30,937 bases of DNA from a virus. The stretch is taken from IMG/VR virus record IMGVR_UViG_3300024262_000162, positions 1-30,937 of that record; one strand, 5' to 3'. The translations under genes and the position numbers were made by a program. This document shows, in pieces, positions 504 to 23,265 of the stretch. The number at the start of each line of letters is the position of its first letter. The first letter of the stretch is position 1. The notes beneath the pieces were generated by a model. That model was not told where the DNA came from and searched no databases. It was given only the letters and a program-made list of their open reading frames with translations.

Positions 504-590
504 TGGTAGCGGGAGCCGGAATCGAACCGGCACGGACCTGCGTCCGTCGGATTTTAAGTCCGGTGCGTCTACCTATTTCGCCATCCCGCC
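504..590 (-). tRNA. tRNA-Leu(UAA)
   Basis: The minus strand folds into a complete class II tRNA of 87 nt including an encoded CCA. The 7-bp acceptor stem closes with a G-U pair, followed by U8 and a D arm with a GGUAGA loop. The anticodon loop CUUAAAA has anticodon UAA. The long variable arm has a 5-bp stem and the T arm has a UUCGAAU loop. The long variable arm, anticodon and A discriminator all indicate leucine. The base of the anticodon stem has one C-A mismatch, so four pairs are sound. It would read UUA, a codon expected to be common in this AT-rich genome. Confidence 0.95.
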
Positions 591-870: not shown

Positions 871-1725
871 TTAAAGAATCCTTGCTCCTGGATATTCCCA
901 GTCATAAGATATTTCCCCATTAGGAAAATAAATTATTTGTCTTATCTCCTCGGGATTCTTGCTCCTGGTGAGACAATCGGAGATGCATAAATTCTGGCCC
1001 TCATAATCATAGACAGTTGAAGAGTAGGACAAAAATAAAAGTGATGTGGCTTTTGAACTAACAAATTCCTGAAGATGTGAAACTATTCTAGGGGCAATTT
1101 CATATCGTTTCCTATTTTCATGATCGCTATATCCGGCAGGAAATTTAACTGGTCTCCATGTCAGCTGATCAACCGTACAAGCTTTGGAGAATTTTACAAG
1201 GTTATCCATTTCCTGGGTGGTGTCGATCATTCCACGACAGCCAACCACACTTAGTCTCACAGAAAGACCAACACTTTTTATCATTGCTATTGTCTTTGCC
1301 AGTGGTGGATATTCGCTCATGTCATTCAGCAATACTTTTTGATTTACATCATCTTTGTAGTGTGCAACAGAAAGACAGATTGTTGTCAATCCAATATTGT
1401 ATAGATCACCAAGAACTCCGTTCTCGTGCATTTTCCCTATGAGCAATCCATTCGTTTGGAGTTCTACAAGAGGGAAATGATCAGAAAGAATTTCAATGGT
1501 ATCGATCAAATCATCAATATACAATGTTGGCTCACCCTTTCCTGTTATTAGTGCAGTCGTCACACCAGCATGATATGCTATCCTGGCCGCTACATTCAAA
1601 TTTCTCAAATTCATCTTTGAGCTGCCGTCCAAATCTTTTGGGGCTGTCATTTTAGAAACACAATAAGGACATAATGCATTGCAAACATTCGTTCCCACAC
1701 ATGCTGAAAGAGTTTTAAATTTCAA
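871..1725 (-). CDS. Radical SAM domain protein (284 aa)
   Basis: The CxxxCxxC cluster motif (CNALCPYC, about residues 15-22) binds the 4Fe-4S cluster that cleaves S-adenosylmethionine. It is followed by the SAM-contacting GKGEP (about residues 63-67) and an ELQTNG strand, in the order expected of a half-barrel radical SAM enzyme. Later cysteines (CLSV, VGCRG, ACTVD, NLCISDC) could bind a second cluster, but this is uncertain. The start is a TTG at 1725: a strong GGAGG sits 4 bases before it, and the TTG overlaps the TGA stop of rtcB, so translation is coupled to the RNA ligase. That pairing hints at RNA or nucleotide modification, but the substrate cannot be named. Confidence 0.85.
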   Translation of the reverse strand: MKFKTLSACVGTNVCNALCPYCVSKMTAPKDLDGSSKMNLRNLNVAARIAYHAGVTTALITGKGEPTLYIDDLIDTIEILSDHFPLVELQTNGLLIGKMHENGVLGDLYNIGLTTICLSVAHYKDDVNQKVLLNDMSEYPPLAKTIAMIKSVGLSVRLSVVGCRGMIDTTQEMDNLVKFSKACTVDQLTWRPVKFPAGYSDHENRKRYEIAPRIVSHLQEFVSSKATSLLFLSYSSTVYDYEGQNLCISDCLTRSKNPEEIRQIIYFPNGEISYDWEYPGARIL

Positions 1726-2543
1726 GATTCCTCCTTGAAATACTTTATCATTTCTTCTTTCGTTATTTTATCTTTGAGATTCCTGATAACCAACAATCTG
1801 TCCAAAACCTTTGCTGTTGGCTCTATAAGTCTTTCAATTTCAGAAGGATCTTTATAGACTCTTGGATCTTCGTCGAGGGTGGCTTCACACACAGAATCAG
1901 AATAAATATCTGCCATGGATTCTTTGAAAGTCTCCATATCAAGAGTTTTCTTGGCCTGATTACGTGATAATACCCTGCCAGCGCCATGGGGGGCTGAAAA
2001 ATTCCATTCTGGATTGCTCTTCCCATCACAGATAATCGACCCATCTTTCATAGTAAATGGGATGATCATTTTTTCTCCAACATAACTTCGTATGGCACCT
2101 TTCCTGATTATCATATCATCGAAGTCGATATAATTATGCACACTTTCAATAATATCAGATATTGGTTTTCCAAAATATTTCGAGATTTCGGATGCAATAA
2201 CATATCTGTTCAATCTCGCGTATTCTTGTGCAACTATCATATCGACCACATAATCGAACATATCTCTATCTTCTAGATATGCTAAATTATCCCAAGTGTC
2301 AATTGTTCCTTCGATTTCTTTTGCCTCTTTAATTCTTTTTCCTATTTGTGTTTTATCTGTTGTTGATCGAAGTATTTCCTCTATCTTTGTCTTCATAAGA
2401 ATATTTCGTTTATGCTTCAATCTTTTTTTAGCAACATTCATATGATGCATACAAACCATTTTTCCAAAATTCCGCGATCCTGTGTGAATAGTTGCATAGA
2501 ATTCTTCTGTTTTGAAAGACTGATTTAACTCTATAAAATGATT
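1722..2543 (-). CDS. rtcB: RtcB RNA ligase, exon 2 (catalytic C-terminal part)
   Basis: This is the second exon (273 residues) of a GTP-dependent RtcB ligase, which joins RNA 2',3'-cyclic or 3'-phosphate ends to 5'-OH ends. It begins at NHFIEL, the second half of the conserved GGGNHF motif, and supplies the Asn and metal-binding His. Further on are the metal-binding His in IHTGSR, VHN with the following IIRKGAIRS, and APHGAGR, whose His is the guanylation site in characterised RtcB proteins. The usual C-terminal Lys-Gly end is replaced by a longer charged tail. Taken alone, the frame could only start at a TTG at 2546 with no ribosome site, so it is probably made only from spliced mRNA. It overlaps the downstream radical SAM start. 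Confidence 0.93.
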   Translation of the reverse strand, partial: NHFIELNQSFKTEEFYATIHTGSRNFGKMVCMHHMNVAKKRLKHKRNILMKTKIEEILRSTTDKTQIGKRIKEAKEIEGTIDTWDNLAYLEDRDMFDYVVDMIVAQEYARLNRYVIASEISKYFGKPISDIIESVHNYIDFDDMIIRKGAIRSYVGEKMIIPFTMKDGSIICDGKSNPEWNFSAPHGAGRVLSRNQAKKTLDMETFKESMADIYSDSVCEATLDEDPRVYKDPSEIERLIEPTAKVLDRLLVIRNLKDKITKEEMIKYFKEES

Positions 2544-2744
2544 CAATTTTCTCTAGTTTCATAACTTATTGTTTCTATTTCTAGAGTTTGGACTGTCGCT
2601 TCATTTATATGGAAATGTCTTCTCGCTCAGTCTCTCACGGTGGAATAGATGAATTCCTTCCGCCCTGTCATCCCAAACAATAGGATTTCCAAGTCAATCA
2701 GAGAAGATTTCAGTTTATTTTATTTGGCCTGGAGGCAATCATTT
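2544..2744 (-). ncRNA. Small group I intron (about 201 nt) interrupting rtcB
   Basis: All pairings are on the minus strand. P1: exon UGGUGGU (2751-2745) with intron GCCUCCA (2736-2730), with U-G at the splice site and one U-U mismatch. The 8-base P1 loop (2744-2737) is perfectly complementary to the first eight bases of exon 2 (2543-2536), giving P10. P3: 2707-2701 with 2624-2618 (7 bp). P4: CUUG (2693-2690) with CAGG (2667-2664). P5: 2686-2683 with 2673-2670. P6: 2657-2653 with 2646-2642. P7: GACUG (2632-2628) with CAGUC (2595-2591). P8: 2617-2613 with 2606-2602. P9: 2586-2581 with 2556-2551. The 5' exon ends in U and the intron ends in G, as group I splicing requires. Length 201 keeps the rtcB frame. 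It encodes no homing endonuclease. Confidence 0.93.
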
Positions 2745-3266
2745 ACCACCACCAACGGTTCCAACAGAATTTAAGAATTTATCAAGACGCATTCCTATTT
2801 CTTTGCATCTTCCAACAAGCCATTTATAGCTGATATGTGGGATGTTTCTCTGTCCAAAAATTAGAGAAACTCTTTCTACCATACTATTAACATTTTTCCA
2901 TCTGAACAACTTCTCAAAATCAACAATCGGTTCTGAATGTGTGACACAACCAAAGGGGATCAATTTTCTAATTTCTTTTGGAGTTTCTTCAGATATGAAT
3001 TTGTCCATTAGGTCTGGTCCAAGGCATAAGGACATGACCGAACATCCAATATCAAAACCAATAACATTCGGAACAATCTTATCTTTCGTTAATTTCATGG
3101 TGAAACCAATACAACAACCAGATCCATTATGTATATCAGGCATAAATATTGCATCATTAGTAAATGCAATATTATTGATCATGTGATGTATTTGAGAAAT
3201 TGCTTCCGGTTCAACTGTTTCGGCGTGGACCACAGCACATGCGTATTTTCCTTCAATGTAAAACAT
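2745..3266 (-). CDS. rtcB: RtcB RNA ligase, exon 1 (N-terminal part)
   Basis: The first 174 codons of rtcB. The frame carries MPDIHNGSGCCIGF and VIGFDIGCSV, the family motifs that hold the metal-binding Asp and Cys, and ends at GTVGGG. In the family this is always followed by NHF, which here sits at the start of exon 2, 201 bases downstream. Unspliced mRNA adds one Lys and stops at the TGA at 2741-2739, giving a 175-residue fragment without the NH, IHTGSR and HGAGR residues. The spliced product is 447 residues, between typical bacterial (about 410) and archaeal (about 480) RtcB. The ATG at 3266 overlaps the TAA of the upstream gene by one base. Confidence 0.93.
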
Positions 3267-4486: not shown

Positions 4487-4600
4487 TTAGAAATCTCCCA
4501 ACCTCGATCTTAAGTAAGCAATTTTAACCATTTGGTATATTTTCAATATCCCCATTAGAAAAATACCAACCATTGCGAAATTTTTAAAAACTTTCCTCAT
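4487..4600 (-). CDS. Single-helix membrane peptide (37 aa)
   Basis: A short frame whose ATG at 4600 overlaps the TGA of the upstream radical SAM gene (ATGA), with GGAGAGAGG just before it. The peptide starts MRKVFKNF and has one hydrophobic stretch (FAMVGIFLMGILKIY) followed by a basic end (RSRLGDF). The positive-inside pattern suggests an inner-membrane peptide. Coupling to the upstream gene and the ribosome site support expression; the function is unknown. Phage-encoded membrane peptides of this size are often lysis- or exclusion-related, which is speculation here. Confidence 0.55.
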   Translation of the reverse strand: MRKVFKNFAMVGIFLMGILKIYQMVKIAYLRSRLGDF

Positions 4601-5358
4601 CGTCCTCTCTCCTTTATTTTTATTATTGTGGATGGCAACATTTTGTTTCTCAAATCATTCTTTATGTAATAATTCGCCCCAATCCTATTTAGTATACTTA
4701 TTACTGATTCACCAAACTGGCGCCAATCAATTGTTTCCGCATGTGGATGATAATTTAAAGTTCCAATTTTAAATATATCCACAAATTCATGTGTCATTTT
4801 GATAAGTTGAAAAGTCTGTCTAGGTTCTATGACTGGCTCCATGCTTACCCATGTTTCGATGCCGGCATCGTGCATTATTTTGAGTGCTTCTATCCTCTCG
4901 CTTGGCAATGCGGCCCCTGACTCCCATTCAAGAGAATCTTTTGTTTCCATGAATGTCAATGTGGTTCCATATTTACTTAATTCTGGATTGTTAGAAAGTA
5001 GATCAATATCCTGAACACTTCTTCTCCCGCCCTTGGTTAAAATGGATACTCTTACTTCGTTTTCATGAAGAACCTTTATTATTTCTCTCGTCAATCTCAG
5101 CTGATCATTGATTGGTTGGTATGGATCTGTCACGAAACATAACTGCACCGTCTTTCCCTTGAACGCAGATGCTTCCAGTTTAACTCTCTCCAAAATGTTA
5201 TCTCTTGGAATAGGATTTTCCCATAACTCTTTTGAAATTTTAATGATATCTGGACCATAACAATATTTACAAAGATGCCCACAACCACTATATATATTGA
5301 TCGCGTGTTCCTCGTATTCTCTGGCTCTTCCAGATGTCGAATAAATGACACCCTGCAT
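4597..5358 (-). CDS. SPL-type radical SAM protein (253 aa)
   Basis: This resembles the spore photoproduct lyase (SplB) and related radical SAM proteins. The GCGHLCKYCYGP segment (about residues 25-36) has the CxxxCxxC 4Fe-4S motif in the setting typical of that family. It is followed by CFVTDPYQP, matching the family (S/C)xxTDPYxP strand, then SILTKGG and WVSMEPVIEP. Characterised SplB members repair UV-induced thymine spore photoproduct; others in the wider family are uncharacterised. At 253 residues it lacks the longer N-terminal region of Bacillus SplB. The ATG at 5358 has GGAGG 6 bases upstream, and the stop overlaps the next start. DNA or nucleotide repair is the best guess. Confidence 0.8.
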   Translation of the reverse strand: MQGVIYSTSGRAREYEEHAINIYSGCGHLCKYCYGPDIIKISKELWENPIPRDNILERVKLEASAFKGKTVQLCFVTDPYQPINDQLRLTREIIKVLHENEVRVSILTKGGRRSVQDIDLLSNNPELSKYGTTLTFMETKDSLEWESGAALPSERIEALKIMHDAGIETWVSMEPVIEPRQTFQLIKMTHEFVDIFKIGTLNYHPHAETIDWRQFGESVISILNRIGANYYIKNDLRNKMLPSTIIKIKERGR

Positions 5359-6615: not shown

Positions 6616-7320
6616 ATGAAGAAATTAGTATTATTATTTATTTTGTTGGCAGTTTCAGTTGGGGCGTTTCCTTTGGATTCTGAGGTTTTTACAAACATCT
6701 ATGATAATGTCCATGAGAGCGTAGTATCACTTAAAATTTATTATGATAATACCCTTATCCCACAACCATCATGTGGCACGGGATTTATTATTACAGAAGA
6801 TGGTTATGTTATGACTAATAATCATGTAGTAGATAATGCTTCTAAAATTTTTATTGAATTTTCCGAAACTAGAAAGTATTTAGCAAAAGTTATATATGTT
6901 GTGCCAGATCAGGATTTGGCGGTTATTAAAATAGAATCCAACCTTAAGAATTTTAAACCTATAAAATTTGGAGATTCGGATTTGATGAAAAAAGGGAATA
7001 TATCTTTAGTGTTGGGAGGTCCATTTGGAATATCCCAGACATTTACAATGGCAATGGTTAGTAATATACATATTGAAATAGATATGATGGACATATTGCA
7101 TTTTAGAAAAATGTTACAACTAGATGCAACTCTGAACCCTGGAAATAGTGGTGGTCCAGTTTTTAATTTAAATGGAGAAGTGATAGGAATAAATTTTGCG
7201 GTACATACCATGGGTGCGGGAATTGCGTATTGTATACCTATTAATATAGCTGTTGAATATTGGGAAAAATATTTGAAATCATTGGAGGATATTAATGAAA
7301 TTAAAATTAAAGAAAACTGA
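6616..7320 (+). CDS. Secreted trypsin-like serine protease, HtrA type without PDZ (234 aa)
   Basis: An N-terminal signal peptide (MKKLVLLFILLAVSVGA, likely cleaved near residue 17) precedes a single chymotrypsin-fold domain. The catalytic triad is His70 in NNHVVDNA, Asp100 in DQDLAVIKI and Ser178 in NPGNSGGPV, all in HtrA/DegP-like settings. The protein ends soon after the domain, so the PDZ repeats of host DegP are absent. It should act outside the cytoplasm, which is unusual for a phage gene lying beside tail genes. It is led by a strong AAGGAG. Its last 26 bases overlap the next gene, which suggests joint expression with the membrane-active paralog. Possible targets are host envelope proteins or the neighbouring product. 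Confidence 0.9.
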   Translation: MKKLVLLFILLAVSVGAFPLDSEVFTNIYDNVHESVVSLKIYYDNTLIPQPSCGTGFIITEDGYVMTNNHVVDNASKIFIEFSETRKYLAKVIYVVPDQDLAVIKIESNLKNFKPIKFGDSDLMKKGNISLVLGGPFGISQTFTMAMVSNIHIEIDMMDILHFRKMLQLDATLNPGNSGGPVFNLNGEVIGINFAVHTMGAGIAYCIPINIAVEYWEKYLKSLEDINEIKIKEN

Positions 7321-21324: not shown

Positions 21325-23265
21325 TTACTGGATATAATGCCTTAAGAAAATCTTCTCAGTTGTTCTTGTTGGTTCAAGAATAACATCTACATTGAATATT
21401 TTTCTTTTTCTTTCTTCATCTGACGCATCGGCTTTTACTGAATAACTATAGAGACCACGCTGCTTCTTTACTGTTTCGAGGAATCCAGCAATTGCACTTT
21501 CAACCATTGCCCAAGTTTCTTCATCATTTTGTTCATAGATGAAGTTTCTGCAATATTTTCTCAATGCTCTATCAATATATAGAACTGCTCTAACAATATT
21601 GATATCCTGCATTGCACTTGGTTTACTCTGTGATGTTAACTGCTGCCAGAAAACTGGAAAGCCTTCTAATCTGACAATATAATTCAACTGAGCAAGATAT
21701 AGATTATCTCTCTGTGCTTGTTTTGGATTATATCTTAAATCTTTAACACTTTCACAGACACCTCTATTAAGACCAGCAAAAGCAAACCAAATAAAGGTTT
21801 CTTCATCACTCTGTGGAATAATGTAGCTAAGATGATATGAAGGTGAAACCCAAATATATCTTCCGCTATAATTATCATAAACTTTTGTATGGTTCGACCA
21901 CAGAGATATGTAGCTATTGTTATATGGATGATTCTGATATCTGGATGCAATAGCTGTTTGTGGATTAACATCATCACCATTATCTAACAGTGCTATACAA
22001 TCTTTTCTCAGGATTGATGCGAGATAATTAATATTATCTTTGACTGGTGTTGGATAGTTGGCATCAAATACTGTATCAAACAAAACGTTATCAATATCAT
22101 ATACGTTTTCATCATAATCACCAACATATGCTTTAGATAATGATTGTGTTGCAACATTTCCATCTAATTTGCCATTGATATCCCAGAGTGTTCCATCTGA
22201 TCCTGAACCCATTTCTTTCATGCTGAGATCTCCACCGCCAGCATATACTTCTGCTCCAAATTTGAAAATAATGTCATGAATGAGCGGATTATAAGGATCA
22301 ACTATTCCGTCGCCATAATGTGCGTAAAGTTTTCCTTCTACAGCACTTTTAATGACATCACCATCAAGAGCGGGAGTTGCGACCCATGTTCCACCAATTG
22401 TATTCCAAACAACATAATTTCCATCTAGCCCTGCGAAGCCCCCACGACCACCTCTTAATACAAGATAAGTATCACCATTGGCTGGTGCCAGAGGTGGTTC
22501 ATAAATCATATCAAGAACTTGGTTGACAGCTCCTGCAAGTTCATTTTCTACTTCGGCAACTAATTGATCATATGTTTTTCTATCACTAATTCCACATCTA
22601 AGATATAGACTAGTTCTTTCAAGCACATCTTCTATAAAAATGCTCTGTCCAAAATCGTCAACGATTCCGTCTTTGAAAGCAACTTCATGATATTCCATAA
22701 GAAGCAATGAACCATCGTCCTTTTCATAATAAAGATCGAGAATAAAAGTTTCTTCTTTATTCATAACCTTTGTCAATCTGAAATTAAGTCTATTGTAGTA
22801 TTCCCCGCGTCCGGTGGCAGTAAATATCATTGCCGGATGCCAATAATCCTGGGCTGGTGGTTCTGCTTTTGCATAGAAACTCTGCATTGCAGTGCTTCTA
22901 TCTGTAAAAATGTCCTGTGTAAAAGTAGTAGTGAAAGCTCCACCTGTTGGTTTTTGAAGTTGTACAGTTAAGTTTGCAACTTGAGCATCAGCAGGTAAAA
23001 CCCTCATACAATACATAGATCCAGAACTTGTGACATTCTTTTCGGCATTTATCATGCCTTGTCCGTAAGATGGACCATATTTGAAATAATTAGGTTCCCC
23101 GAAATTGGTTATTAGTGCTTGCTGATCTGGGCAGAAAATTATTTCATTATCTGGACCTTTATCAGCAAGGAACGCAATAAAACCAATGGACACTGGCACG
23201 TTCTGAACATATGAGTTTAAATCTGTAAAGCTTGAATAAGCTCCTGGGCTGATAGGAATAGCCAT
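21325..23265 (-). CDS. Tail sheath protein, gp18-like (646 aa)
   Basis: It has an N-terminal start typical of sheath proteins (ISPGAYSSFTD, then PVSIGFIAFLADKGPDNE), followed by a YGPSYGQGMINAEKNV segment and CMRVLPAD. The C-terminal domain carries EVFIW-like strands, an INIVRAVLYIDRALRKY helix, and a final strand-rich end (FNVDVILEPTRTTEKIF), as in the conserved subtilase-fold-independent sheath core. At 646 residues it is near T4 gp18 (659). The middle (about 200-400), with extra beta loops, is the variable outer part. A strong AGGAGG precedes the ATG, as expected for an abundant virion protein. Confidence 0.92.
   Translation of the reverse strand: MAIPISPGAYSSFTDLNSYVQNVPVSIGFIAFLADKGPDNEIIFCPDQQALITNFGEPNYFKYGPSYGQGMINAEKNVTSSGSMYCMRVLPADAQVANLTVQLQKPTGGAFTTTFTQDIFTDRSTAMQSFYAKAEPPAQDYWHPAMIFTATGRGEYYNRLNFRLTKVMNKEETFILDLYYEKDDGSLLLMEYHEVAFKDGIVDDFGQSIFIEDVLERTSLYLRCGISDRKTYDQLVAEVENELAGAVNQVLDMIYEPPLAPANGDTYLVLRGGRGGFAGLDGNYVVWNTIGGTWVATPALDGDVIKSAVEGKLYAHYGDGIVDPYNPLIHDIIFKFGAEVYAGGGDLSMKEMGSGSDGTLWDINGKLDGNVATQSLSKAYVGDYDENVYDIDNVLFDTVFDANYPTPVKDNINYLASILRKDCIALLDNGDDVNPQTAIASRYQNHPYNNSYISLWSNHTKVYDNYSGRYIWVSPSYHLSYIIPQSDEETFIWFAFAGLNRGVCESVKDLRYNPKQAQRDNLYLAQLNYIVRLEGFPVFWQQLTSQSKPSAMQDINIVRAVLYIDRALRKYCRNFIYEQNDEETWAMVESAIAGFLETVKKQRGLYSYSVKADASDEERKRKIFNVDVILEPTRTTEKIFLRHYIQ

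What the first reader, a model, noticed from the sequence alone, without database searches (positions are those of the whole stretch)
2544..2744. Compact group I intron inside a phage rtcB RNA ligase gene
Seen: two frames on the minus strand give the halves of one RtcB, broken exactly between GGG and NH of the GGGNH motif, with 201 bases between them. Those bases can be folded into P1, P3, P4-P6, P7, P8 and P9. The first eight intron bases are perfectly complementary to the first eight exon 2 bases (P10), the 5' exon ends in U and the intron ends in G. Known: these are the rules of group I self-splicing. Inference: rtcB is expressed only after splicing. I know of no described group I intron in a phage rtcB, but could not search.
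Basis: partly seen in the sequence, partly recalled or inferred. Interest (0 to 1): 0.93.

Follow-up and report, generated by a model that had tools for sequence, protein, structure and literature searches.

The report
Self-splicing intron in phage RNA-ligase gene
A phage gene for the RNA-repair enzyme RtcB is interrupted by a 201-base RNA that almost certainly cuts itself out; it belongs to a large group of compact phage self-splicing introns that the standard RNA library (Rfam) does not recognise, and the same spot in rtcB is hit by at least two different kinds of such intron in other phages.

Summary
Confirmed by computation. The minus-strand rtcB is split exactly between GGG and NH of its catalytic motif by 201 nt (2744-2544) with in-frame stops; intact RtcBs align straight across the junction. 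Rfam's group I model (RF00028) does not match it, even at E=10. However, a pattern taken from its core finds at least 120 IMG/VR contigs with the same P3-P8 group I topology. On 50 non-rtcB members, 97.4% of predicted pair cells form pairs (39-46% in slid controls), with two-sided covariation in P3, P5, P6, P7 and P8. A covariance model from those 50 hits the held-out window intron at 103.9 bits (E about 2e-25). Three more IMG/VR contigs carry the family at the identical rtcB nucleotide, with similar P1 and P10. Five Bacillus phages have a different, RF00028-positive group I intron at that nucleotide. One LAGLIDADG homing-endonuclease lineage occurs in both intron types and free-standing beside intact rtcB; every copy found lies in or next to rtcB. 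Splicing itself was not observed. The intron is a new member of a known kind in an apparently undescribed host gene. The Rfam-invisible family and the rtcB-dedicated endonuclease are the more interesting parts.

The parts
2745..3266 (-). rtcB exon 1 (174 codons, ends GGU GGU GGU = GGG of GGGNH)
1722..2543 (-). rtcB exon 2 (starts AAU CAU = NH of GGGNH; 273 codons plus stop)
2544..2744 (-). compact group I intron, 201 nt, no homing endonuclease gene; terminal G at 2544
2739..2741 (-). in-frame UGA two codons after GGG in the unspliced message (GGG-K-stop)
2731..2750 (-). P1: 5' exon GGUGGU (2750-2745) with internal guide GCCUCC (2736-2731); U2745.G2736 wobble at the splice site, one U-U mismatch
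   Evidence: sequence; same guide in L019 and L046
2737..2744 (-). P10 5' strand AAAUGAUU, pairs with exon 2 2543-2536 AAUCAUUU (8/8)
   Evidence: 8/8 in L019, 8/8 with one G.U in L109, interrupted by an extra base in L046
2618..2707 (-). P3: UCUUCUC 2707-2701 with GAGAAGA 2624-2618
2664..2693 (-). P4 CUUG 2693-2690 / CAGG 2667-2664, enclosing P5 AUCCU 2686-2682 / GGGAU 2674-2670
2638..2662 (-). P6 CGG 2662-2660 / CCG 2640-2638 with P6a GGAAU 2657-2653 / AUUCC 2646-2642
2590..2634 (-). P7: G2634-C2590, bulged A2633, GACUG 2632-2628 / CAGUC 2595-2591 (G2632-C2591 = predicted guanosine-binding pair)
2602..2617 (-). P8: CAUUU 2617-2613 / AAAUG 2606-2602
2551..2586 (-). P9: CUCUAG 2586-2581 / CUAGAG 2556-2551
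   Evidence: not in the covariance model

Best explanation
A compact group I self-splicing intron without its own endonuclease gene sits in the most conserved catalytic motif (GGG^NH) of a phage rtcB gene. In the pre-mRNA, P1 holds the 5' exon end GGUGGU against the guide GCCUCC with a U.G pair at the junction. A guanosine bound at the P7 G-C pair attacks after U2745; the freed exon, aligned by P10, then attacks after the terminal G2544, joining GGU to AAU and restoring the RtcB frame. Unspliced message stops at GGG-K-UGA, so active ligase needs splicing. Shown here: site, frame, core structure by covariation, relatives at the same site. Inferred: that it splices, the chemistry, and the dependence of RtcB on splicing.
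For: Halves match consecutive parts of Pfam RtcB, and intact phage RtcBs run through the junction. The insert has several in-frame stops, so read-through and intein are excluded. Of 32 core pairs on 50 non-rtcB relatives, 22 covary on both sides; 97.4% of cells pair versus 39-46% in slid controls, including two covarying P7 pairs (A-U/G-C; A-U/G-C/U-A) around an unpaired bulge. Held-out window 103.9 bits, E 1.8e-25; other rtcB members L109 107.8, L046 105.4, L019 96.3 bits. Matching exon-intron junctions, P1 and (mostly) P10 occur in those three contigs. RF00028-positive introns sit at the same nucleotide in Bacillus phages. All intron-bearing rtcBs read here end exon 1 in GGU; the nine intact ones read have no U there.
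Against: No RF00028 match. No RNA data. P1 has a U-U mismatch and is short. The family was collected with a pattern of 21 bases taken from this intron and one relative, so identity in J3/4-P4 is circular; the covarying helices P3, P5, P6, P7 and P8 lie outside or between those bases. Subgroup not determined.
Confidence: 0.95

Rival explanations
1. The insert is a decayed group I intron that no longer splices; two separate half-proteins are made from the two frames (ATG at 3266 and TTG at 2546).
For: Second frame does have a TTG start at 2546; no endonuclease gene is left; P9.1/P9.2 present in L019 are missing.
Against: All invariant core positions and every P3-P8 pair are intact; both exons keep the RtcB motifs after the break (HTGSR, HNY, HGAGR), and each half alone lacks part of the active site; P10 and U.G splice site retained.
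Confidence: 0.04
2. Sequencing or assembly artefact, or another kind of insert (intein, group II intron, IS remnant, bulge-helix-bulge intron).
For: Metagenomic contig of one assembly; 201 is a multiple of 3 as an intein would be.
Against: Several in-frame stops exclude an intein; same junctions in three independent contigs; covarying group I core with P3/P7 pseudoknot.
Confidence: 0.01

Closest known systems
Group I introns in rtcB of Bacillus phages Goe17, Goe20, Goe27, BSP36, 278BB001 (Herelleviridae)
   Same: Same insertion nucleotide GGG^NH, same TGCC(T)TCC-type guide, terminal G; split gene noted in GenBank for BSP36 and 278BB001
   Different: 1120 nt, RF00028-positive ribozyme of another lineage (71-72.6 bits; only 16-20 bits with R1) and a LAGLIDADG endonuclease gene; no paper found that describes it as an intron
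Compact (~206 nt) group I introns of Jug gut phages (PMC12363816)
   Same: Size and phage setting; splicing of 37 of 76 predicted introns supported there by metatranscriptomes
   Different: Found with subtype models; reported host genes differ (terL, nrdD); whether they belong to the family here was not tested
Rfam RF00028 Intron_gpI
   Same: P3-P8 topology with P7 bulge; R1 places its P7-P8 region on the same bases as RF00028 in Bacillus rtcB introns
   Different: RF00028 gives no match to window or to family members at E<=1
Bastillevirinae introns, NAR 2025 (PMC11878797)
   Same: Phage group I introns with in vivo/in vitro splicing shown
   Different: Found in DNA polymerase, terminase, thymidylate synthase and ribonucleotide reductase; rtcB not mentioned

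Membership tests
Group I self-splicing intron | Core helices P3, P4-P6, P7, P8 with P3/P7 pseudoknot order | tested here: met
   covariation in P3, P5, P6, P7, P8; P4 invariant; held-out window hit
Group I self-splicing intron | P7 with bulged nucleotide and invariant G-C guanosine-binding pair | tested here: met
   columns 94-161 and 100-156 covary, 95 unpaired, 96-160 G-C in 50/50; window G2634-C2590, bulged A2633, G2632-C2591
Group I self-splicing intron | P1 with U.G at the 5' splice site | tested here: met
   U2745.G2736; exon 1 ends in U in all intron-bearing rtcBs read
Group I self-splicing intron | Intron ends in G; P10 with 3' exon | tested here: met
   G2544, 8/8 P10; also terminal G in L019, L046, L109, L002, L010, L011
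Group I self-splicing intron | Match to Rfam RF00028 | tested here: not met
   but RF00028 is not definitional and misses the family and two blastn relatives of the Bacillus intron, L143 and L144; PMC6125680 found no hits with RF00028 in archaea where subtype models succeeded
Group I self-splicing intron | GTP-dependent excision and exon ligation | not testable with these tools
   needs in vitro transcription or RNA data
RtcB RNA ligase (Pfam PF01139) | Both halves match consecutive parts of the profile; catalytic motifs present | tested here: met
   (41.4 and 126.9 bits, cut-off 27); motifs in the joined translation; PDB RtcB relatives
Named group I subgroup (IA-IE) | Best match to a subgroup model | not tested

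The most novel reading that the evidence does not exclude
The window intron is one of a large phage-specific group I subgroup that standard screening overlooks, and the rtcB GGG^NH site is a dedicated homing site: one LAGLIDADG endonuclease lineage has been coupled to two clearly different ribozymes at the same nucleotide and also exists free-standing beside intact, site-altered rtcB genes, so the endonuclease rather than the ribozyme defines the niche.
Probability: 0.45. Interest if true: 0.65.

Novelty: new member of a known kind. Interest (0 to 1): 0.5.

Why it matters
It indicates that a key RNA-repair enzyme of phages is itself made only after RNA self-splicing, in several unrelated phages and at exactly the same catalytic codon pair. 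It exposes a large set of compact phage introns that Rfam-based annotation misses, so many split phage genes (coat, ribonucleotide reductase, tape-measure-like) are probably mis-annotated. An isolate, Roseobacter phage CRP-118, carries a member in ribonucleotide reductase and gives a direct bench test.

Tried and rejected
Rfam RF00028 at gathering and at E<=10 gave nothing for the window. Minimum free energy folding was uninformative (z = -1.06). The motif scan with GGAGGCAA..ATTTACC..CC gave 8 chance hits in genome contigs and one chance hit in IMG/VR (L132), none with RtcB or a model hit. R1 on six bacterial genomes found nothing. Introns or intron-like stretches of Staphylococcus, Listeria and Lactococcus phages are not found by R1, so R1 is a family model, not a general group I model. 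L003-L006, first suspected to be split by partial BLAST matches, are intact. Intein excluded by in-frame stops. Literature: no phage rtcB intron in held papers.

Full report
OBSERVATION. On the minus strand, exon 1 of rtcB runs 3266..2745 and exon 2 2543..1722; the 201 nt between them were checked base by base. The joined translation is a continuous RtcB with GTVGGGNHF across the junction, as in intact phage RtcBs that align straight through it (41.6% identity to LR756501, 38% to an IMG/VR contig). Pfam RtcB covers both halves in order. The insert is 67 codons long but has several in-frame stops, the first being UGA at 2741-2739, so it is neither an intein nor readable through.

STANDARD TESTS FAIL. 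Rfam RF00028 gives no match to the window at gathering score, at E<=10, or in a whole-record search, and minimum free energy is near the shuffled mean.

RELATIVES SETTLE IT. The only weak blastn relative among 50,697 phage records was a split P22-like coat gene (E 0.2), which shared CTCTGATTGACTTGGAA and GACAGGGC with the window. In them the bases between and after the pattern change freely but keep pairing. On 50 non-redundant members, none in rtcB, a structure P3, P4, P5, P6, P7, P8 has 97.4% of cells paired against 39-46% for slid versions, 22 of 32 pairs changed on both sides, and 0 of 500 shuffles as good. P7 shows two variable pairs (A-U/G-C and A-U/G-C/U-A) on either side of four invariant ones, with one unpaired base between the outer pair and the invariant G-C. 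From established knowledge of group I introns this is the guanosine-binding site. A covariance model of the 50 (P7 left out of the model because it is a pseudoknot) finds the window intron, which was not used to build it, at 2713-2583 with 103.9 bits, E 1.8e-25. Caveat: the pattern bases themselves are shared by construction.

SAME SITE IN OTHER PHAGES. Three of the IMG/VR contigs carry the family in rtcB at the same nucleotide: L019 (242 nt, no endonuclease), L046 (1051 nt, with an ORF matching the I-TevI zinc-finger model) and L109 (1067 nt, LAGLIDADG endonuclease). Guide sequences and P10 are largely kept: AAATGATT in L019 identical to the window; AAATGGTT in L109 still pairs with one G.U; L046 has one extra base. 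Five Bacillus phages have at the same nucleotide a 1120-nt intron that RF00028 does recognise in the three read (71-72.6 bits), while a near relative, BSP38, has an uninterrupted gene. R1 scores those introns at 16-20 bits only, its P7-P8 part falling on the same bases as RF00028's. In every intron-bearing rtcB examined exon 1 ends in GGU; nine intact genes read have GGC, GGA, GGG or AAT at that codon, as a U.G splice-site rule would predict, apart from the Asn codon's U in L147, whose site has changed altogether; relatedness limits the weight of this point.

AN ENDONUCLEASE TIED TO rtcB. The LAGLIDADG endonuclease of L109 is 37% identical to that of Goe20 although the two introns have different ribozymes. 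Its only six relatives in the phage collection are the five Bacillus rtcB introns and a free-standing gene directly after an intact rtcB in LR745208; the single further IMG/VR relative, L147, is free-standing and divergent from an intact rtcB. L147's rtcB has the site changed to LGSNNHF and LR745208's to LGAGNHF. Inference: an endonuclease lineage dedicated to this rtcB site has changed partners. The window intron itself has no endonuclease gene and none was seen among the neighbouring genes that were scanned.

MECHANISM. Shown: structure, site, frame, retained P1 and P10. Inferred: two-step guanosine-initiated splicing producing full-length RtcB; unspliced message giving only a 175-residue fragment. 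A stop codon just inside the intron would also keep ribosomes out of the ribozyme core; this is an inference from established group I knowledge.

NOVELTY. Group I introns of about 206 nt are known in huge gut phages, with splicing supported by metatranscriptomes (PMC12363816), and group I introns of Bastillevirinae have been spliced experimentally (PMC11878797), but neither search nor reading turned up a phage rtcB intron. GenBank already holds split rtcB genes in Bacillus phages with the endonuclease annotated. The window intron is therefore a new member of a known kind. RF00028's blindness to this family is in line with an earlier report that subtype models succeeded where RF00028 gave no hits (PMC6125680), so I do not claim a new subgroup; subgroup models could not be run.

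Noticed in passing
L012-L131 (IMG/VR loci), e.g. L022, L030, L012, L027: Large family of compact group I introns with conserved core CTCTGATTGACTTGGAA..GACAGGGC, inserted in coat, ribonucleotide reductase and tape-measure-like phage genes, invisible to Rfam RF00028. Some have long extra sequence, possibly endonuclease genes, in P6 or P8.
   Followed up: partly
L141 (Roseobacter phage CRP-118, OR420741, locus 1993-2394): A cultured phage whose ribonucleotide reductase is annotated as two genes; a family intron (113 bits) lies between them; the genome paper does not mention an intron.
   Followed up: partly
L109 5952-7018, L002 1911-3030, L148, L147: One LAGLIDADG endonuclease lineage found only in or beside rtcB, with two ribozyme types and free-standing.
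   Followed up: partly
L009 (MW202674) about 1492-1710: P22-like coat gene of a metagenomic podovirus annotated as two coat proteins is split by a family intron (121 bits).
   Followed up: partly
window 507-590, strand -: tRNA gene with a long variable arm (57.1 bits), near the rtcB gene; consistent with phage tRNA repair.
   Followed up: no
window 871-1725 and 4597-5358, strand -: Two radical SAM proteins flank rtcB and a gamma-glutamyl cyclotransferase-like gene.
   Followed up: no
window 6616-7320, strand +: Trypsin-like serine protease with a hydrophobic, signal-like N terminus in a phage contig (PF13365).
   Followed up: no
window 21325-23265, strand -: Tail sheath most similar to jumbo phage phiR1-37 (28% identity); the contig is a fragment of a contractile-tailed, probably large phage.
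   Followed up: no
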